The notes beneath the pieces were generated by a model, which saw only the letters and a list, made by a program, of their open reading frames with translations, did no database searches and was not told where the DNA came from. Both the position numbers and the translations under genes were made by a program. From positions 1 to 44,281 of IMG/VR virus record IMGVR_UViG_3300031669_000062: a DNA stretch of 44,281 nucleotides, one strand, 5' to 3'. Positions 3,020-44,281 of this stretch are shown piece after piece (the first letter of the stretch is position 1; the number at the start of each line of letters is the position of its first letter). The DNA comes from a virus.

Positions 3020-3165
3020 ATAGCGGAGGCTGCTGAGTGGGATGCTGAGGAGGCTGAGCGGGCTGCTGAGGAGGCTGAGCGGGCTGCTGAGGAGGCGGCG
3101 GAGGCGGCGAGGAAAGAGCAGTGGGATATAATTGAGACACTGCTAGGAAACTTGGAGGGAAAATG
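3020..3165 (+). pseudogene. 3' remnant of an Ala-rich array gene (Glu/Arg-rich variant)
   Basis: In the frame beginning at 3023 the DNA reads an AEEAERA repeat (21-bp tandem units at 3044, 3065 and 3086) followed by ARKEQWDIIETLLGNLEG. That matches the constant tail ARREQWQKIEMLLRKHLG of the array family at 4278, 10129 and elsewhere. A TAA at 3017 stops the frame immediately upstream and there is no start codon, so only the 3' end survives. Its last bases supply the GGAGG ribosome site of the next gene. The repeat uses Glu and Arg where intact copies use Tyr and Asp. Confidence 0.7.
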
Positions 3166-3405
3166 TTCAAAAATAAGCCCGGTCAAGGGGCAAAAAAAAA
3201 AATAACAACAAAAAAACTACTATCCATAATAGCCTGCAATTCGGTTGAAGGCTATTGTGACATGACGAACATCGAGTTGGCCAGAGCGGCTCGATGTTCG
3301 AAATCAACCATCGACGCACGCCTTAAGGAGTGCGTAGAAGAAGGCTCGATCGAACGAGTCTTCGTTACTAACAGAGATAGAAAAATCTATCTCTTAAAAA
3401 AATAA
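3163..3405 (+). CDS. small winged-helix/HTH DNA-binding protein
   Basis: 80 residues with a basic N-terminus (GQGAKKKITTKK) and a helix-turn-helix at about residues 36-60 (TNIELARAARCSKSTIDARL), then a beta-hairpin-like wing (IERVFVTNRDRKIYLL). The ribosome site GGAGG lies four bases before the ATG. Likely a local repressor or activator; the perfect palindrome on the promoter just downstream (3439-3475) is a plausible target, but this is inference. The coding DNA is almost entirely folded into five consecutive inverted repeats (separate entry). Confidence 0.72.
   Translation: MFKNKPGQGAKKKITTKKLLSIIACNSVEGYCDMTNIELARAARCSKSTIDARLKECVEEGSIERVFVTNRDRKIYLLKK
3228..3394 (+). other. chain of five coding hairpins
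   Basis: Consecutive inverted repeats inside the HTH gene. 3228-3235/3249-3256 (8 bp). 3266-3276/3290-3300 (11 bp, CGAACATCGAG). 3314-3319/3330-3335 around the palindrome CCTTAAGG. 3340-3348/3355-3363 (9 bp, one G-T). 3373-3381/3386-3394 (9 bp, AGAGATAGA, 4-base loop). Gaps between them are only 4-13 bases. Confidence 0.9.
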
Positions 3406-3438
3406 AAGAAACTATTTCATAACTCCCTGATTTTACTC

Positions 3439-3488
3439 AAGATTAATTGTCAAGTTTCGCTTGACAATTAATCTTAATGTGGTATAAT
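3439..3488 (+). promoter_or_regulatory. promoter overlapped by a perfect 16-bp operator-like palindrome
   Basis: AAGATTAATTGTCAAG (3439-3454), loop TTTCG, and its exact complement (3460-3475). The right arm contains the -35 TTGACA (3461-3466); TATAAT follows at 3483-3488 after 16 bases. Surrounding sequence (3409-3520) duplicates 2290-2400. It drives the genes from 3536 onward. Confidence 0.85.
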
Positions 3489-3535
3489 ATGTATATGAGG
3501 TTGAGGTTTTTAAGTTTTTTTAAAAGGAGAAGATT

Positions 3536-3760
3536 ATGAGAGTAGAAACAACAACAAATATGATGACAGATAAAGTTGAAACAACATTATTGATAGGTGA
3601 ATATAGTTTCACCTTTCAAAATACGCTAGAAGAGCTAGCGTATTTCACCAGAAGAGATTTTGAAAATTGTTCCTCAGATGAGGACGGAAGTGTAACGTTG
3701 TTGTGTGACGATTCGTTTTGGGAGGAGTTCGAAGAACTCCTCCTTGAAAACAACATCTAG
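3536..3760 (+). CDS. small acidic hypothetical protein
   Basis: 74 residues, strongly acidic toward the C-terminus (SSDEDGSVTLLCDDSFWEEF). No motif recognised. The start has AAAAGGAGAAG in front. It is the first gene after the duplicated promoter at 3461-3488. Its acidity and size would fit a DNA-mimic or inhibitor protein, but nothing in the sequence proves that. The coding DNA carries several perfect hairpins, one with 11-bp and one with 10-bp arms. Confidence 0.65.
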   Translation: MRVETTTNMMTDKVETTLLIGEYSFTFQNTLEELAYFTRRDFENCSSDEDGSVTLLCDDSFWEEFEELLLENNI

Positions 3761-3796
3761 AATTTTCATTCTGCTCTTTCTCAGGAGAAAGAGCAG
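3595..3796 (+). other. chain of coding and trailing hairpins
   Basis: 3595-3601/3608-3614 (AGGTGAA, 7 bp). 3619-3629/3635-3645 (AAATACGCTAG, 11 bp, 5-base loop). 3671-3675/3680-3684 (5 bp, 4-base loop). 3721-3730/3734-3743 (GGAGGAGTTC, 10 bp, 3-base loop). After the stop codon, 3771-3782/3785-3796 (CTGCTCTTTCTC, 12 bp, 2-base loop) with only a weak T run, so processing or stability is as likely as termination. Confidence 0.9.
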
Positions 3797-3855
3797 TATT
3801 GAGGGTTTTAGTAAACAATTTTAACAGGCCTTATGGCCCTAAAAGGAGAATGAAA

Positions 3856-4221
3856 ATGAACGAAAGCTCACTAAAAATCAAAGAGAACTCCTCTTTGACC
3901 GGATGGTACACAGAACTCTCTAGAGAGTTCCAAGCGGTTATTAGAAAAATTAAATACGATGGCTTGGACGTGTTTCTGAAGAAACACACAAGTATTGTGT
4001 GTAGAACGACCGGGTATGGGTGGTCGGAAAACGAAGTTGAGGAATTTGTATTTTTCGGACTCTATGGAGAGTCAAAAGACTATCAAGAAAACAGGCTTCT
4101 CCGGGTTTCAGGAACCCGGGAAGAGTTTGAATACGCTCTAGGTAGATCGGGGTTACGTTACCCCGATTGCTACGATTACAGGTTCAAGCTCTTAAATGAG
4201 CCATGGAGCTACAAGTTGTAA
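3856..4221 (+). CDS. hypothetical protein
   Basis: 121 residues starting MNESSLKIKENSSLTGW and ending EPWSYKL; mixed alpha/beta, Tyr-rich, no known motif. ATG 3856 is preferred over ATG 3850 because AGGAG then has seven bases of spacing. A leader hairpin-like GGCC-TTAT-GGCC (3827-3838) precedes the ribosome site, as before the next gene. At least seven perfect hairpins lie within 290 bp of its coding sequence. Part of the same island transcript as 3536-3760. Function unknown. Confidence 0.62.
   Translation: MNESSLKIKENSSLTGWYTELSREFQAVIRKIKYDGLDVFLKKHTSIVCRTTGYGWSENEVEEFVFFGLYGESKDYQENRLLRVSGTREEFEYALGRSGLRYPDCYDYRFKLLNEPWSYKL
3878..4167 (+). other. chain of coding hairpins
   Basis: 3878-3885/3891-3898 (TCAAAGAG). 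3913-3921/3922-3930 (GAACTCTCT, perfect dyad). 3970-3977/3980-3987 (GTGTTTCT), overlapping 3984-3991/3995-4002 (ACACACAA), so these two exclude each other. 4058-4063/4068-4073 (GACTCT, 4-base loop). 4101-4107/4113-4119 (CCGGGTT). 4146-4153/4160-4167 (ATCGGGGT). Confidence 0.9.
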
Positions 4222-4245: not shown

Positions 4246-4261
4246 AGGGCCTTCGGGCCCT
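4246..4261 (+). promoter_or_regulatory. leader hairpin with TTCG tetraloop before array copy 1
   Basis: AGGGCC-TTCG-GGCCCT followed by TAAAAGGGAG, the ribosome site. A similar but imperfect version (GGCC-TTAT-GGCC, TAAAAGGAG) stands before 3856. Probably a 5' mRNA structure controlling stability or initiation. Confidence 0.65.
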
Positions 4262-4277
4262 AAAAGGGAGAATTATT

Positions 4278-4850
4278 ATGAAAACAACATTTGGAGATCT
4301 CTGCAGGTTTGATCCATGCTACTCATTCCGAGTCAAACTCGGATTACATAAAAACATGCAGCTCACCACAGAGATCTCTATTTTGGAGATTTTAAACTCT
4401 AATGGTATAGAAGATGCCGTATGGGCATTGAGAACCCAAGAGTACAAAAGTTACTGCCTCTTCCTTGCCGATGTAGCACAGTCGGTGCTACATATTTTTG
4501 AGAAAGCATGTCCTGGCGACATGCGGGTAAGGAACCTTATCGCAGGGATCCGCCGGTGGCACGCCGGTGATATTTCTGACGAGCAATTAGCTGATTATGC
4601 TGCTGCCGTTTATGCGGCTGCTTATGATGGTTATTATGCTACTGCAGCTGGTTATGCTGGTGTGGCTGGGTATTATGCTACTGCTGCTGGTTATGCGGCG
4701 GCTGATTATGCTGCTGCTGCTTATGCTAGTGCTTATGCTGTTGATGCTAGTGCTAGTGCTCGTGCCACTGCTCGCAGAGAGCAGTGGAATAAGATAGAAG
4801 GACTGTTAAGAAAGCACCTTGGAAGGAGGATGAATATGAAAAAAAAATAA
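4278..4850 (+). CDS. array family protein, copy 1 (Imm5-like, Ala/Tyr-rich)
   Basis: 190 residues. Domain order: conserved N-terminal part (MKTTFGDL, EISILEILNSNGI, AVWALRTQ, FLADVAQSVLHIFEKACPGD, IRRWHAGDISDEQL) to about residue 103; an Ala/Tyr/Gly/Asp segment to about 163 made of GCT/TAT/GAT-type codons; constant tail ARREQWNKIEGLLRKHLG. The layout (helical domain, P-x-D-x-R element, A/Y repeats) resembles phage proteins annotated 'putative immunity protein' (Imm5-like); true activity unknown. This copy lacks about ten residues before EISILEI. It does not stop where its relatives do but reads on through the start of a lost neighbour (RRMNMKKK), a deletion scar. Confidence 0.75.
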   Translation: MKTTFGDLCRFDPCYSFRVKLGLHKNMQLTTEISILEILNSNGIEDAVWALRTQEYKSYCLFLADVAQSVLHIFEKACPGDMRVRNLIAGIRRWHAGDISDEQLADYAAAVYAAAYDGYYATAAGYAGVAGYYATAAGYAAADYAAAAYASAYAVDASASARATARREQWNKIEGLLRKHLGRRMNMKKK

Positions 4851-4988: not shown

Positions 4989-5213
4989 TCATTTCAGGAA
5001 CTCCTTTCTTATCCTGAAAAAAGCATACCTGCGCCGGTCCAAAACAGGCTTAATCCTAATCTTTTTCCCCATCATAATATCATTCACTATGCCTACAACT
5101 CTCCGGAATGAGTAGTCAATATTAACCCACCGTTTCTTGTTATCGTCATATTCCTGCACAGTGTTGCCCACTACGAAACTTTTTATTACGGCTATCATTT
5201 GATCTTCTGTCAT
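4989..5213 (-). CDS. hypothetical protein, end of early operon
   Basis: 74 residues from MTEDQMIAVIKSF to FRIRKEFLK; basic C-terminus, no motif recognised. Start 5213 is chosen because AAGGAGAAGGAGAAATAG precedes it and its ATGA overlaps the stop of the upstream gene; an upstream ATG at 5282 would add a segment that is the out-of-frame half of a 74-bp tandem duplication. Last gene of the leftward early operon. Confidence 0.6.
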   Translation of the reverse strand: MTEDQMIAVIKSFVVGNTVQEYDDNKKRWVNIDYSFRRVVGIVNDIMMGKKIRIKPVLDRRRYAFFRIRKEFLK

Positions 5214-5554
5214 TCTATTTCTCCTTCTCCTTGAAAAACACTTGCTATCTTCCATCTGTTCCTCAATAATTGTGGTTCGCATCCTTCAATTTCTTTTAAT
5301 AATCGTAAAAAACACTTGCTATCTTCCATCTGTTCCTCAAGAATTGTGATTCGCTTTTCTGTACGCAACATTGCTGACTCAAGAGCATCTTTTTTTTTAG
5401 CATAAGCATATTTTTTCTTAGATGTCTTACTTATCCACTTTTTACCGGAATGATAATTTATCCAATACCCGCACACGGTATCTTTAATAATCTTATATTC
5501 CTTACACACCACCTTATTGCACACGTTTAATTCATATCGATACAATATTGACAT
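5210..5554 (-). CDS. hypothetical protein with duplicated, frame-shifted C-terminus
   Basis: 114 residues, Lys-rich (SKKKYAYAKKKDALESAMLR) with a coiled-coil-like stretch RTEKRITILEEQMEDSKCF. The last ~25 residues come from a second copy of the same DNA read in another frame, since the 47-bp repeat at 5234-5280 and 5308-5354 has a 74-bp offset. AGGAGAGTAAT precedes the ATG. The start follows the YopX-like gene stop closely. No known family. Confidence 0.6.
   Translation of the reverse strand: MSILYRYELNVCNKVVCKEYKIIKDTVCGYWINYHSGKKWISKTSKKKYAYAKKKDALESAMLRTEKRITILEEQMEDSKCFLRLLKEIEGCEPQLLRNRWKIASVFQGEGEIE
5234..5354. repeat. 47-bp direct repeat, 74-bp period
   Basis: 5234-5280 and 5308-5354 are nearly identical (two differences seen near one end). 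The 74-bp offset is not a multiple of three, so the duplication changed the C-terminus of the gene at 5210-5554. Confidence 0.85.
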
Positions 5555-6936: not shown

Positions 6937-7751
6937 AAAATTTCCTTCCCGTCTAATCCAAAAATTCCGCCTTCTCTATTTCCTGTTGTTATTTTATTTT
7001 CATAATGTTCTCTTAGTTTTTCATTTTTGTATTTCTCCTTTTCAGTTTCTTCAGCTTTTTTCTTGCGCTCATCCATTTCTACCCATGCTTTTATATAATT
7101 TCCTCTTCTGTTCCACGTTTGGAGTCTGCGGTTAAGATCCCATGTTTGCAGCATTTCGAATTTCATTTTTTTTCCGTCAGGATTGTGCTCGCTCCAATAA
7201 TAAAAAAAATCAGAGATCAGTTCAGGCGGATATTCCAGAGAGATTATTTTAGAATTAAGCTCCTCTGAAAATTTTTTAATCCTTTCGTCAAGAGAAAGTT
7301 TTTTTTCTTTAATAGCTTTAGCTATTTTCTTTTTATTAATCTTCTTAATCTTCTTAATCTTCTTAGCTTCTTCGTGTTCACCTGTGGCACCTATGAATGA
7401 ACCGTCAATTGACTGTTCAATTGACTGTTCAATTGACTGTTCAATTACCTGTTCATTCATATGTTCATTCATATGTTCACCTGTGGCACCTATGAATGAA
7501 TATAAGCATGATTTAAACGAGTTGCCACGAACTATTTTTTTCTCTCTCCTTATAATTCCAACATCTTCGAGCTCTCTAATAGCTCTCAAAACAGTATTCC
7601 TTGAAAATCCTGAAACATTTTCAAGGGTTGGGAGTGATGGGTACGTTTTTCCTTTTGGGTTATAATATTGTGCAAGACAAAAGCCAATCAACTTTGCTTT
7701 TGACGAAATTTCGAGATCCATCAACATATCTCGCCAGCTATGAATTGTCAT
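6933..7751 (-). CDS. phage replication initiation protein
   Basis: 272 residues. The N-terminal ~95 residues form a winged helix (KAKLIGFCLAQYYNPKGKTY, PSLPTLENVSGFSRNTVLRA, IRELEDVGIIRREK). A low-complexity linker follows (repeated SFIGATGEH, QSIE and KKI units). The C-terminal domain has the signature FFYYWSEHNPDGKKM and TWDLNRRLQTWNRR of phage initiators. Likely binds the origin, which may be inside its own gene (7337-7500), as in lambda O. Overlaps the upstream HTH gene by 14 bp. Confidence 0.8.
   Translation of the reverse strand: MTIHSWRDMLMDLEISSKAKLIGFCLAQYYNPKGKTYPSLPTLENVSGFSRNTVLRAIRELEDVGIIRREKKIVRGNSFKSCLYSFIGATGEHMNEHMNEQVIEQSIEQSIEQSIDGSFIGATGEHEEAKKIKKIKKINKKKIAKAIKEKKLSLDERIKKFSEELNSKIISLEYPPELISDFFYYWSEHNPDGKKMKFEMLQTWDLNRRLQTWNRRGNYIKAWVEMDERKKKAEETEKEKYKNEKLREHYENKITTGNREGGIFGLDGKEIL
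7337..7500. repeat. iteron cluster inside the initiator gene, candidate origin
   Basis: Three tandem 12-bp repeats TTCAATTGACTG and two of TTCATTCATATG lie between two identical 26-bp repeats (7376-7401 and 7475-7500, exactly 99 bp apart). They are flanked by four CTTCTTAATC-type repeats (7337-7374). All are in frame and AT-rich. Confidence 0.7.
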
Positions 7752-8478: not shown

Positions 8479-8721
8479 ATGAAAAAACGGTACAAGGATC
8501 AACAAGCCGACATTAATACAAATGATATTATTCTTGCGCTTGTCTATATGTGCGATCAGTATCTTACAAGCACAGGTTATGATGATGATGATATATGTCG
8601 GCACAGATATATGGTTGCCGGAGAACAAGCAAAAGAGGTATTAATAAAATTAGGTCTTGCCAAAGATCTCGGTGATGACCTGTTCGAGTTAATTGAGGAT
8701 AAAATAAAGGAGCTTATATAA
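8479..8721 (+). CDS. hypothetical protein
   Basis: 80 residues, helix-rich, with an acidic DDDDI patch (residues 35-39) and the C-terminus DDLFELIEDKIKELI. No family recognised. Ribosome site is weak. First gene of the rightward early operon 8.5-10 kb, behind the promoter at 8409-8436. Confidence 0.6.
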   Translation: MKKRYKDQQADINTNDIILALVYMCDQYLTSTGYDDDDICRHRYMVAGEQAKEVLIKLGLAKDLGDDLFELIEDKIKELI

Positions 8722-8723
8722 TA

Positions 8724-8951
8724 ATGAGCTATAAAATAAAGATTTCCAAACAGACTCCGGAAAGGCTGGAGTTTCTGAGGGCAGGGTATGTTTCCATCTT
8801 ACACGAATATGAAACTCTGCAAACTGAATATGATAAAGATCCCGTGTCCTGCCGGAAACAAGCGATTGACAATTATATGGTTGAGCATGAGATATGGTTA
8901 GTTCGTAAATTGCTAAAAGGGATACTCTATCAAATTGAAAGAATGACATAA
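8724..8951 (+). CDS. hypothetical protein
   Basis: 75 residues (starts MSYKIKISKQTPERLEFL), helical, no known motif. It starts three bases after the previous stop; AAGGAG lies eleven bases upstream. Part of the rightward early operon with the zinc-ribbon and RusA genes. Confidence 0.58.
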   Translation: MSYKIKISKQTPERLEFLRAGYVSILHEYETLQTEYDKDPVSCRKQAIDNYMVEHEIWLVRKLLKGILYQIERMT

Positions 8952-8967
8952 ATAAATGGAGGAGATA

Positions 8968-9162
8968 ATGAAATGTCCCGTCTGCAAAAAAGAGCTCCTG
9001 AAAATCTCGGGGAGCTATATTAATTATTTTGGGATCAGGGAAATTTATGATAAGGACTTTTTGTTCTGTTCTAATCCGATATGTGAGTATGTAGAATACA
9101 CGGAACATTCTACATTAGCAGAACAAGCGGATCTTAAAAATATAAGGAGAGAGTGCGGATGA
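8968..9162 (+). CDS. zinc-ribbon small protein
   Basis: 64 residues with two metal-binding pairs, CPVCKKE at residues 3-6 and FCSNPICEY in the middle, typical of a zinc ribbon. ATG 8968 follows GGAGGAGATA; an ATG twelve bases earlier would lie on the ribosome site. Its TGA overlaps the ATG of the RusA gene. Likely nucleic-acid binding or structural; exact role unknown. Confidence 0.68.
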   Translation: MKCPVCKKELLKISGSYINYFGIREIYDKDFLFCSNPICEYVEYTEHSTLAEQADLKNIRRECG

Positions 9163-9578
9163 AGTATACATTCAGTTTCCCAATAAATCCGCAGCCGAAA
9201 CAGTCTGTAAAAATAGGCAGCAATAAACTAGGTCATATTAGGGCTTATATCCCTAAAAAAAAAGCAAAATACATGAATGACTTACAACTTCTTGTTGCTT
9301 CTCAATTTGGTAGCAGAAAACTTTCAGGTCCGTTAATTATTGAAAACGTGCTGCTTGTTTTTGAGATGCCAAAAAGCTGGAGTGAAAAAAAGAAGAAAGC
9401 GTATTTCGGAACGGCGCACATTCAGACTCCAGACATAGACAATTGCTTAAAACCGTTATTTGACTCTATGCAAAAAGCTGGGGTGTTTGACGACGACAGA
9501 CAGCTGTCATCGTATAAAAACATCAAAAAAGTCTGGGGGTACATAGGCGGAATTGAGGTGGAAATAGGGGAATTATGA
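9159..9578 (+). CDS. rusA: RusA family Holliday-junction resolvase
   Basis: 139 residues beginning MKYTFSFPINPQPKQS, the RusA opening (substrate-binding NPxPKxR-like strand). The acidic metal-binding cluster follows: TPDIDNCLKPLFDSM (residues ~89-103) and VFDDDRQLSSYKNIKKVW (~108-125). RusA endonucleases cut Holliday junctions and branched replication intermediates before packaging. ATG 9159 overlaps the previous stop; a GTG at 9153 is possible but has worse spacing. Works with the Bet/RecT module at 15.8 kb. Confidence 0.9.
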   Translation: MKYTFSFPINPQPKQSVKIGSNKLGHIRAYIPKKKAKYMNDLQLLVASQFGSRKLSGPLIIENVLLVFEMPKSWSEKKKKAYFGTAHIQTPDIDNCLKPLFDSMQKAGVFDDDRQLSSYKNIKKVWGYIGGIEVEIGEL

Positions 9579-9639
9579 AAGTCTTGGTAGGTTGCTAAAC
9601 TACACAAGTTGTAACAAAAGCTTTCCGGGAGATATAAAA

Positions 9640-9996
9640 ATGGATAAAAATCAAAAAAACATGTTAAAAAAAGTGATGGGAATAGATGCGGCGAATTGTC
9701 TCAGTTGTAGTTATTTTTATTATTATGAAAATTTCCAAGTCTGTAGGTTGTCAAAGATGCTTGACAACTTGAACCACTTTCCGTACGAAAAAGAACAACC
9801 TTGCTGGCATCCGTCTTTTTCTGAAAGCCGGTTCGGCTATAGAGTAGATTATGAAACTGCGATTGTGGAAACAATCTACCCAGCTGTTTTTCTGGAGTTA
9901 CAGGCAGAAAAAAAGACAAAGCTTTTTACAGGAATTTTAATTGGATTCATAAGTTCCGCCGCCTTCGGTGCATCTGTTCTCTATTTAGCCGTCTAG
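9640..9996 (+). CDS. Cys-rich protein with C-terminal membrane anchor
   Basis: 118 residues. The N-terminal part carries NCLSCSYFYYYENFQVCRL and CWHP, a four-cysteine pattern like a zinc or Fe-S site. The C-terminus is one hydrophobic helix (LFTGILIGFISSAAFGASVL). Start 9640 follows GGGAGATATAAAA. Last gene of the operon that contains rusA. Contains perfect hairpins in its DNA, for example GTTGTCAA/TTGACAAC near 9745-9768. No family recognised. Confidence 0.6.
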   Translation: MDKNQKNMLKKVMGIDAANCLSCSYFYYYENFQVCRLSKMLDNLNHFPYEKEQPCWHPSFSESRFGYRVDYETAIVETIYPAVFLELQAEKKTKLFTGILIGFISSAAFGASVLYLAV

Positions 9997-10128: not shown

Positions 10129-10728
10129 ATGAAAACAACATTTGAAAAAATCTACAGTTATGATCCATGCGGCAGAGGCTGGGTCACCCTCTGCACCAAC
10201 AAACTCGGTACAGAGTTATATGATGACATGCATCTTACAGCAGAGCAGCTCGCCACAGAGATTTCCATTTTGGAAATCTTGGAGTCAAATGGTATAAAAC
10301 ATGCCGTATGGGCATTGAGAACCCAGGATTATAGGGATTACTGCCTCTTCCTTGCAGATGTAGCAGAATCGGTGCTACATCTGTTCGAGAAAGAATGTCC
10401 TGGCGACATGCGGCTCAGGAACCTTATAGCAGGGATCCGGCGGTGGCACGCCGGTGAGATCTCTGATGAGGAGCTTGCTGAATTGAGGATTGATGATACT
10501 ATAGCGGCTGCTTATTATGCTGATGCTGCTTATTATGATGAGGCTGTGGCTGCTGCTTATGCTGCTGCTGCTGATGAGGCTGCTGTGGCTGCTGCTTATG
10601 CTGCTGTGGCTGCTGATGCTGCTGCTTATGCTGTTGATGCTAGTGCTAGTGCTCGTGCTAGTGCTCGCAGAGAGCAGTGGCAGAAGGTAGAAATGCTGCT
10701 TAGAAAACACCTTGGGAAGGGAGAATGA
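10129..10728 (+). CDS. array family protein, copy 2 (Imm5-like, Ala/Tyr-rich)
   Basis: 199 residues. Conserved domain to about residue 120: KIYSYDPCGRGWVTLCTNKL, then ISILEILESNG, AVWALRTQDYRDYCLFLADV, VLHLFEKECPGDMRLR, IRRWHAGEISDEELAELR. An Ala segment with Asp/Glu/Tyr/Val follows, then ASARREQWQKVEMLLRKHLG. First of four head-to-tail copies whose stops and starts overlap or nearly so, one operon. AGGAGG precedes the ATG. Coding hairpins: AGATTTCCA/TGGAAATCT (10259-10279) and CAGATGTAGCA/TGCTACATCTG (10355-10383). Family resembles 'putative immunity protein'; role unproven. Confidence 0.75.
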   Translation: MKTTFEKIYSYDPCGRGWVTLCTNKLGTELYDDMHLTAEQLATEISILEILESNGIKHAVWALRTQDYRDYCLFLADVAESVLHLFEKECPGDMRLRNLIAGIRRWHAGEISDEELAELRIDDTIAAAYYADAAYYDEAVAAAYAAAADEAAVAAAYAAVAADAAAYAVDASASARASARREQWQKVEMLLRKHLGKGE

Positions 10729-10730
10729 AT

Positions 10731-11348
10731 ATGAAAACAACATTTGGAGAAATCTACAGTTATGATCCATGCGCCTCAGGCTGGATCACACTCTGCACCA
10801 ACAAACTCGGTACAGAGTTACATGAGGAGAAAGAGATCTCCATAATGGAGATTTTAACCTCTAATGGGATAAAACATGCCGTATGGGCATTGAGAACCCA
10901 GGATTATAGGGATTACTGCCTCTTCATCGCCGATGTAGCAGAATCGGTGCTACATATTTTTGAGAAAGAATGTCCTGGCGACATGCGGGTAAGGGACCTT
11001 ATCGCAGGGATCCGGCGGTGGCACGCCGGTGATATCTATGATGAGGAATTAGACGTGCTGAGGATTGCTGCTTATGATGCTGTGAGTGGCTCAATTTCGG
11101 TAGGTGCGGAGGCCGCTGCCCGTGCGGCATACTCTTCAACATCTCAAGAAAAAAACGAGCCGACGGCAGAAGATATCGTAGAGAGTGCTTGCAATGCTAG
11201 TATTTGCGACGCTATAGTTGCTTATGCTGCTGTGGCTGGTTATGCTTTTACTGCTGCTGAGGCTAATGCTGCTGCTGCTAGTGCTCGCAGGAAGCAGTGG
11301 CAGAAGATAGAAATGCTGCTTAGAAAACACCTTGGGAAGGGAGAATGA
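10731..11348 (+). CDS. array family protein, copy 3 with atypical insert
   Basis: 205 residues. Same N-terminal domain but without the DMHLTAEQLAT segment, and the hairpin at 10834-10854 is in its ATCTCCA-TAA-TGGAGAT form. The variable region differs from all others: only short Ala/Tyr runs flank about 45 residues of ordinary sequence (SGSISVGAEAAARAAYSSTS, QEKNEPTAEDIVESACN) encoded by DNA without the GCT repeat (11082-11220). Constant tail ARRKQWQKIEMLLRKHLG. Start 10731 rather than 10725 by ribosome-site spacing. Insert origin unknown. Confidence 0.72.
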   Translation: MKTTFGEIYSYDPCASGWITLCTNKLGTELHEEKEISIMEILTSNGIKHAVWALRTQDYRDYCLFIADVAESVLHIFEKECPGDMRVRDLIAGIRRWHAGDIYDEELDVLRIAAYDAVSGSISVGAEAAARAAYSSTSQEKNEPTAEDIVESACNASICDAIVAYAAVAGYAFTAAEANAAAASARRKQWQKIEMLLRKHLGKGE

Positions 11349-11350
11349 AT

Positions 11351-11935
11351 ATGAAAACGACCTTTGGAGAAATATACAGTTTTGATCCATGCTCCTCAGG
11401 CTGGGTCACCCTCTGCACCAACAAACTCGGTGCAGAGGTACATGATGACATGCATCTTACAGCAGAGCAGCTCGCCACAGAGATTTCCATTTTGGAAATC
11501 TTAAACTCAAACGGGATAAAACATGCCGTATGGGCATTGAGAACCCAGGATTATAGGGATTACTGCCTCTTCCTTGCAGATGTAGCAGAGTCAGTATTGC
11601 ATTTATTTGAGAGAGAATGTCCTGGCGACATGCGGCTCAGGAACCTCATCGCAGGGATCCGGCGTTGGCACGCCGGATCCCTCTCTGATGAGGAGCTTGC
11701 TGAATTGAGGATTGATGATGATGTGGCGGCGGCTTATTATGCTGACGCTGCTTATTATAATAATGCTACTGCTGCTGCTTATTATGCGGCTGATGCTGTG
11801 GCTGCTGCTGCTGTGGCTGATGCTGCTCAGGCTAATGCTGCTGCTAAGGCTGCTGATGCTCTTGCTCGCAGAGAGCAGTGGCAGAAGGTAGAAGAATTAC
11901 TTAGAAAACACCTTGGGAAGGAGGATGAAAGATGA
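11351..11935 (+). CDS. array family protein, copy 4 with perfected hairpins
   Basis: 194 residues, full N-terminal domain, a Tyr/Ala/Asp/Asn segment (about 11720-11867), then ALARREQWQKVEELLRKHLG. It differs from its neighbours exactly where hairpin arms lie. AGGGATCCGGCG/CGCCGGATCCCT (11653-11664, 11671-11682) is perfect over 12 bp, because TGAGAT of the other copies is ATCCCT here, changing HAGEIS to HAGSLS. CCTCTGCACC/GGTGCAGAGG (11410-11438) is perfect over 10 bp, changing GTEL to GAEV. Stop overlaps the next start. Confidence 0.74.
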   Translation: MKTTFGEIYSFDPCSSGWVTLCTNKLGAEVHDDMHLTAEQLATEISILEILNSNGIKHAVWALRTQDYRDYCLFLADVAESVLHLFERECPGDMRLRNLIAGIRRWHAGSLSDEELAELRIDDDVAAAYYADAAYYNNATAAAYYAADAVAAAAVADAAQANAAAKAADALARREQWQKVEELLRKHLGKEDER

Positions 11936-12555
11936 AGACCACATTTGCAGAAATATACAGTTTTGATCCATGCGGCAGAGGCTGGGTCACCCTCTGCACC
12001 AACAAACTCGGAACAGAGTTACATGATGACCTTACAGAAGAGCAGCTTGAGAAAGAGATTTCCATTTTGGAAATCTTGGAGTCAAATGGGATAAAACATG
12101 CCGTATGGGCATTGAGAACCCAGGATTATAGGAATTACTGCCTCTTCCTTGCAGATGTAGCAGAATCGGTGCTACATCTGTTCGAGAAAAAGTTCCCTGG
12201 CGACATGCGGGTAAGGAACCTTATCTCAGGCATGCGCCGGTGGCACGCCGGAGAGATCTCTGACGAGCAATTAGACGTGCTGAGGATTGCTGCTTATGAT
12301 GCTGCTTATTATGCTGATGCTGCTTATTATGCTGCTGCTGCTTATTATGCTGATGCTGTGGCTGCTGCTTATTATGCTGCTGATGCTGTGGCTGCTGCTG
12401 CTAATGCTGCTGCTTATGCTGCTGCTAGTGCTGCTGGTTATGCTGATGCTGCTGATGCTTCTGCGGCTGCTTATTATGTTAGTGCTCGCAGAGAGCAGTG
12501 GCAGAAGATAGAAATGTTACTTAGAAAGCATCTTGGGAAGGGAGATGAAAGATGA
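11932..12555 (+). CDS. array family protein, copy 5
   Basis: 207 residues. Conserved domain (KIYSFDPC-type start as EIYSFDPCGRGW, ISILEILESNGIKHAVWALR, FEKKFPGDMRVRNLISGMRR). One of the longest Ala/Tyr/Asp segments, with repeated AAYYADA-like units (about 12285-12486), then SARREQWQKIEMLLRKHLG. The start overlaps the previous stop; GGAGG is seven bases upstream. Directly followed by dispersed element copy C. The GCT-repeat DNA is also open in a second frame; I regard that as a by-product of composition. Confidence 0.74.
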   Translation: MKTTFAEIYSFDPCGRGWVTLCTNKLGTELHDDLTEEQLEKEISILEILESNGIKHAVWALRTQDYRNYCLFLADVAESVLHLFEKKFPGDMRVRNLISGMRRWHAGEISDEQLDVLRIAAYDAAYYADAAYYAAAAYYADAVAAAYYAADAVAAAANAAAYAAASAAGYADAADASAAAYYVSARREQWQKIEMLLRKHLGKGDER

Positions 12556-12959: not shown

Positions 12960-13113
12960 TGCTGAGGATTTCATTTACTTTTTATCTTCAATAATTATTA
13001 TCTACGCGCTTGCGAACGGTCTTAACTGGCTTAAGTTGTTCCAGCCGAAGATGCGTAGAAATAATATCTCTGTTAGGATTGTTAAAACTAAAAAGCATAA
13101 GGATGAAAGATGA
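12946..13113 (+). CDS. small membrane protein, TTG start
   Basis: 55 residues. TTG at 12946 follows GGGAGGCACAA. A single transmembrane segment (FIYFLSSIIIIYALANGLNW) is followed by a basic tail ending KTKKHKDER. The last codons are the same junction DNA (GGATGAAAGATGA) that ends array copy 5, so the gene was spliced into the array there. A longer frame starting at TTG 12916 is open but lacks a ribosome site. Stop overlaps the next ATG. Partner of the 78-residue gene upstream is possible. Confidence 0.5.
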   Translation: MTTLNAEDFIYFLSSIIIIYALANGLNWLKLFQPKMRRNNISVRIVKTKKHKDER

Positions 13114-13781
13114 AGACCACATTTGAAAAAATCTACAGTTATGATCCATGCTCCTCTGGCTGGGTCAAACTCTGCACCAACAAACTCGGTACAGAGTTAC
13201 ATGAGGACCTTACAGAAGAGCAGCTTGGTAAAGAGATCTCCATAATGGAGATTTTAACCTCTAATGGGATAAAAGATGCCGTATGGGCATTGAGAACACA
13301 ACAGTATAGGGATTACTGCATCTTTCTTGCCGATGTAGCAGAATCGGTGCTACATATTTTTGAGAAAGAATGTCCTGGCGACATGCGGGTAAGGGACCTT
13401 ATCTCAGGCATGCGCCGGTGGCACGCCGGCGAGATCTCTGACGAGCAATTAGACGTGCTGAGGATTGCTGCTTATGATGCTGCTGAGGCTAAGGCTGCTG
13501 ATTATGCTGCTGCTGCTAAGGCTGCTGCTTATGCTGCTACTAATGCTGCTGCTGCTAAGGCTGCTAATGCTGCTGCTAAGGCTGCTACTAATGCTGCTTA
13601 TGCTGCTGTGGCTGCGGCTGATTATGCTGCTGATTATGCTGCTGATTATGCTGCTGATTATGCTGGTTATGCTTATGCTGATGCTTCTGCTGCTGCTTCT
13701 GCTACTAATGCTGCTCGTGCTAGTGCTCGCAGGAAGCAGTGGAAGAAGATAGAAGAATTACTTAGAAAACATCTTAAGTAG
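13110..13781 (+). CDS. array family protein, copy 6 (longest repeat)
   Basis: 223 residues, the longest member. Standard N-terminal domain with AVWALRTQQYRDYCIFLADV, then an Ala segment of about 88 residues that uses Lys and Asn as well (EAKAADYAAAAKAAAYAATN) followed by a DYAADYAADYA run; tail ARRKQWKKIEELLRKHLK. Lys content makes its repeat more basic than the Tyr/Asp types. The gene ends with the AAGTAGGAGAATGAATATG junction that also starts the SbcC-like gene. Confidence 0.74.
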   Translation: MKTTFEKIYSYDPCSSGWVKLCTNKLGTELHEDLTEEQLGKEISIMEILTSNGIKDAVWALRTQQYRDYCIFLADVAESVLHIFEKECPGDMRVRDLISGMRRWHAGEISDEQLDVLRIAAYDAAEAKAADYAAAAKAAAYAATNAAAAKAANAAAKAATNAAYAAVAAADYAADYAADYAADYAGYAYADASAAASATNAARASARRKQWKKIEELLRKHLK

Positions 13782-34988: not shown

Positions 34989-35410
34989 TATCTTGTTGTC
35001 CAGTATGCATTTATTAATTTTTTTATATTTGTTTTTGACGGCCATTGTAGGAATTTTCTTTGTGGCACTCCTTTTCCCTTTTGATGGCGCCACATGTAGC
35101 CGTCTGGAACTCCAACTTCTACACTTATTATACCATTGACATGATAGTTTACTGTACGCCATCCTAAGCCTTTGTCCAGGAGTGTAGTTCCTGAGCCGCT
35201 TGGGCTTTTTTTCCGTCCTCGTCTCAATTTCAAAGTCATCTCACTCACTGTTGGCGTAACCTTGTCATCTTTAATATATCGAATGGTTTCTTTCTGAGCG
35301 GCTCTCCCGATTTCGTCAAGGAGTGTTTTTATGTCAGAGGTGTTTGCGACTTTTTTGATCCACCTATTAAATTCAGATCCTTTTTCAAACCCTGTGACTT
35401 TAGCGCCCAT
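34988..35410 (-). CDS. virion morphogenesis/tail completion protein
   Basis: 140 residues. SDIKTLLDEIGRAAQKETIR, a basic RRGRKKSPSGSG loop and the ending KGVPQRKFLQWPSKTNIKKL match phage virion morphogenesis proteins (P2 S / Mu G type), which complete the tail or head-tail joint. ATG overlaps the previous stop. Confidence 0.76.
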   Translation of the reverse strand: MGAKVTGFEKGSEFNRWIKKVANTSDIKTLLDEIGRAAQKETIRYIKDDKVTPTVSEMTLKLRRGRKKSPSGSGTTLLDKGLGWRTVNYHVNGIISVEVGVPDGYMWRHQKGKGVPQRKFLQWPSKTNIKKLINAYWTTR

Positions 35411-35925
35411 TATTCAAACCCTTTTAATGCTGTTTTTATCTCTGTATTGGTAAGATTGTAGATACTTACTACAGAATCTTCGCTGTCATGATCCACTGTA
35501 TTAGAAGGATCAGCAGCATTTCCGATAAGAGCCTCAATTAATTCTTGAGCCTCTTTCTTCTCTGTTGTTGCCTCTCCATCCTGCCCAGAGTCTTCATACA
35601 TGTTCGAGATTGAAAGTTGAATTAAACTTTCAAAAATCATGGCGTAAGTTTCGCCATTTTCAGAATCAATAATATTTAATGTAGCTCTGATAGTGTCGAG
35701 ATTCGTTAAATCTGACGAATCCAATGAATATATGGCGGATCTCCAAGACATAAAAAAATCAGTCCGCCCGGCTTTTATGAATCTCCCCATAATCCATAGG
35801 AGGGCTGCGCTGACTGCATCCCTCCCTAAAGTATCGGCTTTTTCTTGAAGCAAGTTCGTTGCATCTTCGTTGAAAATGCGGTTGGCTATAATATAGTTAA
35901 GAACGTCAGCATTTGTTATGGCCAT
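35410..35925 (-). CDS. probable head-tail connector protein
   Basis: 171 residues (MAITNADVLNYIIANRIFNE to TEIKTALKGFE). Helical N-terminal part ADVLNYIIANRIFNEDATNL and an acidic C-terminal half. No motif is decisive; position between capsid and tail-completion genes suggests a gp6-type connector (DNA packaging adaptor). Confidence 0.55.
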   Translation of the reverse strand: MAITNADVLNYIIANRIFNEDATNLLQEKADTLGRDAVSAALLWIMGRFIKAGRTDFFMSWRSAIYSLDSSDLTNLDTIRATLNIIDSENGETYAMIFESLIQLSISNMYEDSGQDGEATTEKKEAQELIEALIGNAADPSNTVDHDSEDSVVSIYNLTNTEIKTALKGFE

Positions 35926-39533: not shown

Positions 39534-40073
39534 ATGAAAACTACATTCGGAAAAATCTACAGTTATGATCCATGCTCCTCTGGCTGGATCACCCTCTGCA
39601 CCAACAAACTCGGAACGTTACAGCTTACAGAAGAGCAGCTCACCACAGAGATCTCCATAATGGAGATTTTAACCTCTAATGGTATAAAACATGCCGTATG
39701 GGCATTGAGAACCCAGGATTATAGGGATTACTGCTTGTTCATCGCAGATGTAGCAGAATCGGTGCTACATATTTTTGAGAATGAATACCCTGAAGACATG
39801 CGGGTAAGGGACCTTATCGCAGGGATCCGGCGGTGGCACGCCGGTGAGATCTCTGATGAGGAATTAGACGTGCTGAGGATTGCTGCTTATGATTATGCTG
39901 CTGCTGCTGTGGCTGCTGATTATGCTGCTGCTAATGCTGCTGCTAAGGCTGCTTATTATGCTGCTGATACAACTGCTTATGCGGCTGCTACTGCTGCTGC
40001 TTATGCTAGTGCTTATGCTCGCAGAGAGCAGTGGAAGAAGATAGAAGAATTACTTAGAAAGCATCTTAAGTAG
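39534..40073 (+). CDS. array family protein, copy 7
   Basis: 179 residues, the shortest member. Standard N-terminal domain (KIYSYDPCSSGWITLCTNKL, without the ELHDD segment; VLHIFENEYPEDMRVRDLIA), a short Ala/Tyr segment of about 45 residues, tail ARREQWKKIEELLRKHLK. It is about 26 kb away from the main array, so the cassette has moved or the array was split. GGAGG lies seven bases upstream of the ATG. Followed by copy 8 with the AAGTAGGAGAATGAATATG junction. Confidence 0.75.
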   Translation: MKTTFGKIYSYDPCSSGWITLCTNKLGTLQLTEEQLTTEISIMEILTSNGIKHAVWALRTQDYRDYCLFIADVAESVLHIFENEYPEDMRVRDLIAGIRRWHAGEISDEELDVLRIAAYDYAAAAVAADYAAANAAAKAAYYAADTTAYAAATAAAYASAYARREQWKKIEELLRKHLK

Positions 40074-40083
40074 GAGAATGAAT

Positions 40084-40662
40084 ATGAAAACGACATTTGG
40101 AGAAATATACAGTTATGATCCATGCTCCTCTGGCTGGGTCAAACTCTGCACCAACAAACTCGGAACAGATTTACATGATGACCTTACAGCAGAGCAGCTT
40201 GGTAAAGAGATCTCCATAATGGAGATTTTAACCTCAAATGGTATAAAACATGCCGTATGGGCATTGAGAACCCAGGATTATAGGGATTATTGCTTGTTCA
40301 TCGCCGATGTAGCAGAATCGGTGCTACATATTTTTGAGAATGAATACCCTGAAGACATGCGGCTCAGGAACCTTATCGCAGGGATCCGGCGGTGGCACGC
40401 CGGTGATATCTATGATGAGGAATTAGACGTGCTGAGGATTGCTGCTGTGGCTGCTGCTTATTATGCGGCTGATGCTGATGCTGCTTATTATGCTGCTGTG
40501 GCTGCTTATTATGCTACTGATACAACTGCTTATGCGGTTGCTTATGCTGCTGCTTATGCTGCTGCTTATGCTGATGCTTATGCTAGTGCTTATGCTAGTG
40601 TTTATGCTCGCAGAGAGCAGTGGCAGAAGGTAGAAATGCTGCTTAGAAAACACCTTAAGTAG
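40084..40662 (+). CDS. array family protein, copy 8
   Basis: 192 residues. Domain as in copy 6/7 (EIYSYDPCSSGWVKLCTNKL, ENEYPEDMRLRNLIAGIRRW), Tyr-rich repeat (AAYYAADADAAYYAAVAAYY and on) and ARREQWQKVEMLLRKHLK. The ATCTCCA-TAA-TGGAGAT hairpin form is present. The first ~30 bp before and into the gene are identical to the start of the SbcC-like gene at 13792, showing shared junction DNA. Start 40084 by ribosome spacing. Confidence 0.75.
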   Translation: MKTTFGEIYSYDPCSSGWVKLCTNKLGTDLHDDLTAEQLGKEISIMEILTSNGIKHAVWALRTQDYRDYCLFIADVAESVLHIFENEYPEDMRLRNLIAGIRRWHAGDIYDEELDVLRIAAVAAAYYAADADAAYYAAVAAYYATDTTAYAVAYAAAYAAAYADAYASAYASVYARREQWQKVEMLLRKHLK

Positions 40663-43214: not shown

Positions 43215-44281
43215 TTAAAAGTTATTCATGATGTCGTTTATTCCTCTTGGTGAAAATCTGTCTGCTGTTTCTGTTAGGTTGTCTCCTGCACTGCTGCTTG
43301 AGAATTCTTTGTCCTCTTCAAAATGGAAAAGAGTATGAAGAGCGTAGCGCATCGCATCCATGGAATCGTCATTTTCCTTTCGAGGTTCTTCTTTGCTTTT
43401 ATGATCGATCCATATATATGAATAGACTTCCTGCATCCATCTTTTAGCTTTATTCCTCACAACGAAAAACTTTCCATCATTCATTAATCTTGAACACGTG
43501 TCAATGCCCTCAATGACTTCTTTTTTCGCATTTACTCCGCCGAATCTTAGAACATACTCTGGTCTGGCACTGTCACAATACCATTGCATTTTTCCATATT
43601 TAGTTTCATATTTATTTTTCCTTTCTACCCACCAATCAATCTCTTTTCCTTTTTCGGCAGTTTCTTCGAGAAGATATATGTTGCCGTCATGATCCTCGCC
43701 GAAAATTAAAATTGATCCTACATGACCATAACCCCAATCAACGCCAGCGAAAAATCTTTTAAATTCAGGAAGGTTTTCGGCATCTACTATCATGTTTTCA
43801 TTGAAATGCTTATATATTACACCCTCAGCTGCTACCCACTTTCCCCATATCGCACGGTCTTTCTTGAACCCCGTAAATGAAGCCTCAAGGTTTTCTATAT
43901 ATTCCTCTGTTAGGTATCCTCCATTCTTTTTTGAATTGTCCCATAAATTAAATGACCAGGCCTTAATTCTTATTCTTCCCGAAGATAATAGAACTCCGTC
44001 ATTATCTATATAATCGGTCTTAATAGGATGCGTTGGATAATCAGGGTTGCAATCCCAAAAGACTCTTGATCCCTCTCCGGAACATCTTTTGATTGCCTCA
44101 TCTACAGAATTTTCATGTGACAAATTAACCTCGTTACCGTACCACCCTGAAGCGGTAAGGCCTCACATAGCCTTATACGAATGAGTCTTGTCCGTACCGA
44201 AGCAGCAGATGGTGTTGCCAAAAAGATTAAATTCATTGCTCGAATTAAGGCTGCAATCTATCCCGAAAAAAGATTCAAGCT
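43215..44281 (-). CDS. terL: phage terminase large subunit, C-terminal part (TerL)
   Basis: Continuation of the TerL frame from 1-460. It holds the RNase H-like nuclease: GVDWGYGHVG (Asp254), WYCDSARPEY (Asp309) and DDSMDAMRY (Asp377, Asp378, Asp381), the acidic triad-type residues that cut concatemers at packaging start and end. The unique part is 43215-44038; 44039-44281 repeats bases 1-243. In this copy codon 112 reads TGA (A at 44165), so the frame read from this end alone looks truncated to a start near 44123. The other copy has CGA, and a full-length enzyme is expected. Confidence 0.92.
44039..44281. repeat. terminal direct repeat, right copy
   Basis: Same 243 bases as 1-243 except A instead of G at 44165, which turns Arg112 of TerL (CGA) into TGA on the minus strand. 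Contig ends are the least reliable part of an assembly. Confidence 0.93.

What the first reader, a model, noticed from the sequence alone, without database searches (positions are those of the whole stretch)
3228..4167. Protein-coding DNA built from a near-continuous chain of hairpins
In three consecutive small genes (3163-3405, 3536-3760, 3856-4221) I count at least fifteen inverted repeats, most with perfect arms of 7-12 bp and loops of 0-6 bases (two at 13). Within the first gene they are separated by only 4-13 bases. Random sequence should give well under one such hairpin per kb, and by eye the virion genes look ordinary. The proteins still look like normal folded proteins (one is an HTH protein), so coding and structure are maintained together. 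Possible meanings: mRNA armoured against nucleases, translational regulation, single-stranded DNA folding, or a mutational process that creates palindromes.
Basis: seen in the sequence. Interest (0 to 1): 0.9.

Follow-up and report, generated by a model that had tools for sequence, protein, structure and literature searches.

The report
Phage genes packed with RNA hairpins
Four small neighbouring genes in an uncharacterised tailed DNA phage carry a chain of hairpins in their protein-coding sequence, with more excess structure in the first gene than in the two genes measured of the RNA phage MS2; the pattern is real and codon-level, but why the phage keeps it is not yet known.

Summary
In genes 3163-3405, 3536-3760 and 3856-4221, and also in 4278-4850, perfect hairpins and predicted sense-RNA structure far exceed codon-preserving shuffles (z -8.6, -5.5, -5.0, -3.2) and dinucleotide shuffles (11 hairpins in one kb against 0.6 expected; the maximum in any kb of six control dsDNA phages is 4). 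Gene 2418-2900 next door has none, and nearly all virion genes are at chance. Excess folding energy in the first gene (-181 kcal/mol per kb) is larger than in the MS2 maturation (-70) and coat (-48) genes.

G.U wobbles lengthen or create about six stems and A.C mismatches none (pooled P = 0.02), which points to the transcribed strand as RNA. Codon choice alone suffices: arms of 9 bp or more are realised about 30 times more often than in other genes, although only 1.6 times more sites permit them. In a related 8-copy gene family one copy shows a multi-base change that perfects a 13-bp stem, the footprint of template switching.

Best reading: an mRNA-level structure, supplied partly by template-switch mutation and retained by selection on the transcript. 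Function is inferred, not shown.

The parts
3163..3405 (+). gene 1, 80-aa winged-helix-like protein; five consecutive hairpins after a 60-nt A-rich mostly unpaired 5' end
   Evidence: RNA fold z -10.5 against dinucleotide shuffles, codon-shuffle z -8.6; HTH_24 weak, phrog_270/186 E 3e-5 to 1e-4; predicted H-H-H-E-E, pLDDT 64
3225..3259 (+). hairpin, 11 pairs with one U.G (8 perfect), loop 13
3266..3300 (+). hairpin, 11 perfect pairs, extended to 14 with two U.G, loop 7
3311..3338 (+). hairpin with an internal mismatch and a 6-bp perfect core (3314-3335)
3340..3363 (+). hairpin, 9 pairs with one G.U
3373..3394 (+). hairpin, 9 perfect pairs
3439..3475 (.). 16-bp perfect dyad overlapping the -35 of promoter P2; probably a DNA operator; the upstream copy at P1 (2320-2356) is less perfect
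3461..3488 (+). promoter-like P2, TTGACA-16-TATAAT (12/12); P1 is the same at 2342-2369
3536..3760 (+). gene 2, 74-aa orphan; hairpins 3595-3614 (7 bp), 3619-3645 (11 bp), 3721-3743 (10 bp)
   Evidence: codon-shuffle z -5.5; no convincing family hit
3771..3796 (+). intergenic hairpin, 12 bp
3827..3838 (+). leader hairpin GGCC-UUAU-GGCC before the RBS of gene 3
3856..4221 (+). gene 3, 121-aa orphan; hairpins 3878-3898, 3913-3930, 3970-3987 or 3984-4002, 4058-4073, 4101-4119, 4146-4167
   Evidence: codon-shuffle z -5.0; no family or tblastn hit
4246..4261 (+). leader hairpin AGGGCC-UUCG-GGCCCU before gene 4 (cUUCGg loop)
   Evidence: sequence, fold
4278..4850 (+). gene 4, 190-aa Imm5_like/phrog_18326 protein with Ala/Tyr-rich tail; hairpins 4327-4343, 4372-4392, 4471-4493, 4506-4524, 4551-4569, 4765-4787
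   Evidence: codon-shuffle z -3.2; stems; PF21805 E 1.5e-8
11653..11682 (+). 13-bp perfect stem in paralog 11345-11935, made by a cluster of substitutions relative to the other copies

Best explanation
The transcripts of this accessory-gene island are folded mRNAs. Short stable hairpins every few dozen nucleotides are written into codon choice while the proteins stay ordinary; 5' ends of the genes are left largely open. SHOWN: the excess over codon and dinucleotide nulls, its restriction to these genes, its excess energy compared with two MS2 genes, and that codon choice suffices. SUPPORTED BUT NOT PROVEN: the sense-strand RNA is the selected form, and new or perfected stems arise partly by template-switch (quasipalindrome) mutation. 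INFERRED: the chain of hairpins keeps poorly translated, strongly promoted transcripts from ribonucleases and Rho and/or limits their translation, while initiating ribosomes still load at the open 5' ends and melt the stems as they pass.
For: Codon-shuffle z -8.6/-5.5/-5.0/-3.2; dinucleotide z -10.5 for gene 1; 11 perfect hairpins per kb against at most 4 in any kb of six dsDNA phages; excess energy of genes 1-3 above two MS2 genes. G.U wobbles occur in about six stems, A.C in none; pooled P 0.02; one-mismatch helices 2 G.U against 0 A.C, P 0.03; sense-minus-antisense energy z -3.3, -0.3, -0.9, -1.6. First hairpins start 22-62 nt after the start codons. One leader has a cUUCGg loop, a motif reported as exceptionally stable in RNA only (PMC8794818). 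In the paralogs, stem EISILEI varies at three third-third pairs and every variant stays paired, including C-G to U-A by two silent changes. Copy-specific substitutions disturb folding less than randomly placed ones in 7 of 8 copies, nominally significant in two (P 0 of 300 and 0.027).
Against: No orthologues of genes 1-3 were found, so no conservation test of the main hairpins was possible. The strand asymmetry is modest and absent in gene 2. Homologues of gene 4 in PPpW-3 and a MAG contig are not structured, so structure is not a family trait. The double compensatory change is a single shared event among related copies. No expression or probing data exist.
Confidence: 0.48

Rival explanations
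1. Mutational origin without function: template switching between imperfect inverted repeats during phage DNA replication perfects stems, and weakly constrained accessory genes let them accumulate.
For: Paralog 11351 differs from the others by a cluster (GGTGAGATC to GGATCCCTC) that makes the right arm an exact reverse complement of the left; its copy-specific changes stabilise folding by 16.2 kcal/mol against a random expectation of +4.9. Most stems are perfect; arm registers are mixed (7/4/4 in phases 1/2/3). The mechanism is documented in yeast genes (PMC8604942) and RNA genes (PMC8794818).
Against: It predicts no strand bias, yet G.U is found and A.C is not. Other accessory genes (2418-2900, 8479-9996, 4989-5554) show no significant excess. 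In the 11351 stem a change in the opposite arm (CGG to CGT) also adds a pair, which one copying event does not explain.
Confidence: 0.28
2. Single-stranded DNA structure: the hairpins act in DNA, for example during replication, annealing by the phage RecT-like protein, or packaging.
For: Both strands fold well because stems are mostly Watson-Crick; the antisense strand of gene 1 folded as DNA has z -6.9.
Against: G.U/A.C asymmetry; stems follow one block of co-oriented accessory genes; no repeated motif as expected of a protein-recognised DNA site.
Confidence: 0.1
3. Several unrelated regulatory elements (operators, leaders, attenuators, terminators) fall close together by accident.
For: The intergenic dyads and leader hairpins do look regulatory: P1/P2 operator, two similar pre-RBS hairpins.
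Against: Most stems lie inside coding regions, differ in sequence, and are too many; only the intergenic ones need such an explanation.
Confidence: 0.1

Closest known systems
Coding palindromes in mitochondrial genes of Nematomorpha (PMC6649704)
   Same: Many perfect inverted repeats inside real protein-coding genes; restricted to some genes; no established function; template switching proposed as a source.
   Different: There the repeats reach 284 bp; here arms are 7-14 bp with short loops at close spacing, G.U wobbles and a sense bias appear, and the genome is a dsDNA phage.
Genome-scale ordered RNA structure in coding sequence (RNA viruses; MS2 as yardstick)
   Same: Coding RNA folded beyond codon-shuffle expectation.
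   Different: Here it is confined to about 1.7 kb of a dsDNA phage, with greater excess energy in genes 1-3 than in the two MS2 genes measured.
Template-switch/quasipalindrome mutation (PMC8794818, PMC8604942, PMC7202029)
   Same: Perfected stems and multi-base clusters copied from the opposite arm, seen in the 11351 paralog.
   Different: A general mutational process; it does not by itself predict a dense island in one block of genes or a sense-strand G.U bias.
Rickettsia palindromic elements
   Same: Palindromic DNA tolerated inside genes.
   Different: Those are copies of a mobile element; here the stems of genes 1-3 share no sequence.

Membership tests
Nematomorpha-type coding palindromes | perfect inverted repeats within protein-coding genes, in excess over codon-shuffled sequence | tested here: met
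   expression itself not testable
Nematomorpha-type coding palindromes | very long arms (up to 284 bp) encoding conserved protein regions | tested here: not met
   longest coding arm in the island is 11 bp perfect, 14 with wobbles; proteins 1-3 are near-orphans
Nematomorpha-type coding palindromes | preference for phase 1 (1-1, 2-3) register over phase 3 | tested here: inconclusive
   7/4/4 perfect stems, 63/32/31 bp; codon shuffles favour phase 3; numbers too small
RNA-level ordered structure in coding sequence (GORS-like) | folding energy beyond codon-preserving shuffles across consecutive genes | tested here: met
RNA-level ordered structure in coding sequence (GORS-like) | structure spread over the whole genome | tested here: not met
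   confined to the island; nearly all virion genes at or near chance
RNA-level ordered structure in coding sequence (GORS-like) | compensatory evolution across homologues | tested here: inconclusive
   one double change in paralogs; not testable for genes 1-3
Template-switch mutation product | cluster of substitutions that makes one arm a copy of the other | tested here: met
   met for paralog 11351 only; untestable for genes 1-3
Rickettsia palindromic element or other dispersed palindromic repeat | repeated copies of one sequence in several genes | tested here: not met
   direct-repeat search finds no shared hairpin sequence in genes 1-3
Known structured RNA family (Rfam) | match at gathering score | tested here: not met
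   0 matches

The most novel reading that the evidence does not exclude
A dsDNA phage keeps a set of accessory mRNAs as chains of hairpins, selected on the sense RNA through codon choice: a phage 'structured-mRNA operon' with RNA-phage-like folding, serving to protect or meter expression of these genes.
Probability: 0.4. Interest if true: 0.8.

Novelty: new variant of a known kind. Interest (0 to 1): 0.6.

Why it matters
It is a compact natural case in which one stretch of DNA carries ordinary proteins and dense RNA structure at once, in a DNA phage where no need to package folded RNA exists. Because codon choice alone can build it, recoding experiments can separate RNA function from protein function, and it offers a place to ask whether template-switch mutation or selection builds long perfect stems.

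Tried and rejected
Relatives: eight viral-contig scans, one genome scan (one distant gene-4 homologue) and seven searches of phages or plasmids found nothing useful for genes 1-3. Structure prediction without an alignment was weak for gene 3 (pLDDT 44) and moderate for gene 1 (64; Foldseek hits not significant, best E 0.027). Considered and rejected: Rfam element, dispersed palindromic element, tRNA cluster, hairpins imposed by protein sequence (feasible sites only 1.6-fold richer), simple composition effects (both shuffles). Codon register did not separate selection from template switching.

Full report
CONTEXT. The window is a virus record of 44,281 bases with a 243-bp terminal direct repeat, so probably a complete or permuted genome. 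It encodes a Mu-type portal, a terminase and a RecT-like protein; tail sheath, tube and capsid genes are inferred from the protein sequences and gene order. No near relatives were found in the collections searched. The finding lies in a block of + strand accessory genes at 2.3-4.9 kb.

THE OBSERVATION. Perfect inverted repeats with arms of at least 7 bp and loops up to 8 cluster at 2.9-5.0 kb. Sliding 1-kb counts reach 11 against 0.6 expected from dinucleotide shuffles, while the highest count in lambda, Mu, 9NA, PPpW-3, a Vibrio phage and T7 is 4. Against codon-preserving shuffles the four genes have sense-strand folding z of -8.6, -5.5, -5.0 and -3.2, and no shuffle in 200 reached the base pairs in their G.U-allowed stems. 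The neighbouring gene 2418-2900 has no such stem. Nearly all virion genes are near zero, with 35410-35925 (z -4.9) the clear exception. For scale, excess folding energy per kb is -181, -126, -88 and -48 kcal/mol here, against -70 and -48 for the MS2 maturation and coat genes in the same calculation (the run timed out before the MS2 replicase and phiX174).

ANATOMY. Gene 1 folds as five separate hairpins in a row after an A-rich, largely open 5' end. Genes 2-4 carry 3, 6 and 6 main stems. Two stronger dyads lie between genes. One, 3439-3475, overlaps the -35 of a perfect sigma-70-like promoter (P2); an almost identical promoter, P1, stands at 2342. In the 61-bp block shared by the two copies the only two differences are in the left arm, and both complete the P2 palindrome, while the right flank differs as a block. 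This dyad is better read as a DNA operator than as part of the mRNA chain. Similar pre-RBS hairpins precede genes 3 and 4, the second with a cUUCGg loop.

WHICH STRAND AND WHICH MOLECULE. Watson-Crick stems cannot tell strands apart, but mismatches can. Letting G.U pairs into stems extends or adds about six stems with 11 wobbles; letting A.C in (which is G.U on the other strand) adds none. Against codon shuffles the difference in base pairs has P = 0.02 and the one-mismatch version P = 0.03. The sense-minus-antisense energy is strongly biased in gene 1, mildly in gene 4, little in genes 2 and 3. I take this as moderate evidence for sense RNA.

PROTEIN VERSUS RNA. For each protein I asked how many stems could be made by silent choice alone. 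Arms of 9 bp are feasible at 11.4 sites per 100 aa in the island and 7.1 elsewhere, but realised at 1.29 and 0.04. The hairpins are therefore mainly a matter of codon choice. Arm registers are mixed.

EVOLUTION. Genes 1-3 have no detectable close homologues, so only gene 4 can be compared. It has seven paralogues in the genome. In them the EISILEI stem varies at three third-third pairs and always stays paired, including one double silent change; because the copies are related this is few events. Paralogue 11351 has a cluster of substitutions that makes a 13-bp perfect stem, changes two otherwise largely conserved residues, and looks like template switching; its private changes stabilise folding by 16.2 kcal/mol where random placement gives +4.9 (0 of 300). 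The island copy's private changes are also less damaging than random (P 0.027). The same copy 11351 has weakened another stem by silent changes, so stems come and go. Gene-4 homologues in PPpW-3 and in a MAG contig are not structured.

MECHANISM. Two processes fit together: template switching supplies or perfects stems, and selection on the transcript keeps those that fold in the sense strand. What the folding does is inference. Strong promoters, open 5' ends and closely spaced stems fit transcripts protected from ribonucleases and Rho, or translated slowly. The purely mutational reading remains a serious rival.

COMPARISON. The nearest published case found is the coding palindromes of hairworm mitochondria (PMC6649704), which differ mainly in arm length. 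Selection for local mRNA folding in coding sequence is widespread across cellular genomes (PMC7063772). I found no report of such an island in a dsDNA phage within the open-access papers searched.

LIMITS. One genome, no relatives, no expression data, energy-model predictions, and modest P values for strand. The excess itself is not in doubt.

Noticed in passing
4278-4850, 10129-12555, 13110-13781, 39534-40662: Eight paralogues of an Imm5_like/phrog_18326 protein with variable Ala/Tyr/Asp-rich tails, in tandem and dispersed.
   Followed up: partly
1670, 6124, 12555, 39369: Dispersed element (53 nt shared by four copies, about 160 nt in three) with its own stem-loops, including CAAAAGTAACTTTTG in three copies; always on the + strand whatever the neighbouring gene direction; no exact match to its core in IMG/VR.
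   Followed up: partly
2290-2421 and 3409-3540: Duplicated consensus sigma-70-like promoter with a dyad over the -35; the second copy has a 16-bp perfect palindrome.
   Followed up: partly
35410-35925: A gene in the virion operon is also structured beyond codon shuffles (z about -5 on both strands).
   Followed up: partly
about 3025-3206: Remnant that reads like the C-terminus of the Imm5_like paralogues (..ARKEQWDIIETLLGN..) just upstream of, and overlapping out of frame, gene 1.
   Followed up: no
7405-7452: 12-nt tandem repeat TCAATTGACTGT inside a replication-region gene.
   Followed up: no
1-243 and 44039-44281: Identical 243-bp ends; the large terminase gene appears split across them, so the record is probably a full genome.
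   Followed up: no
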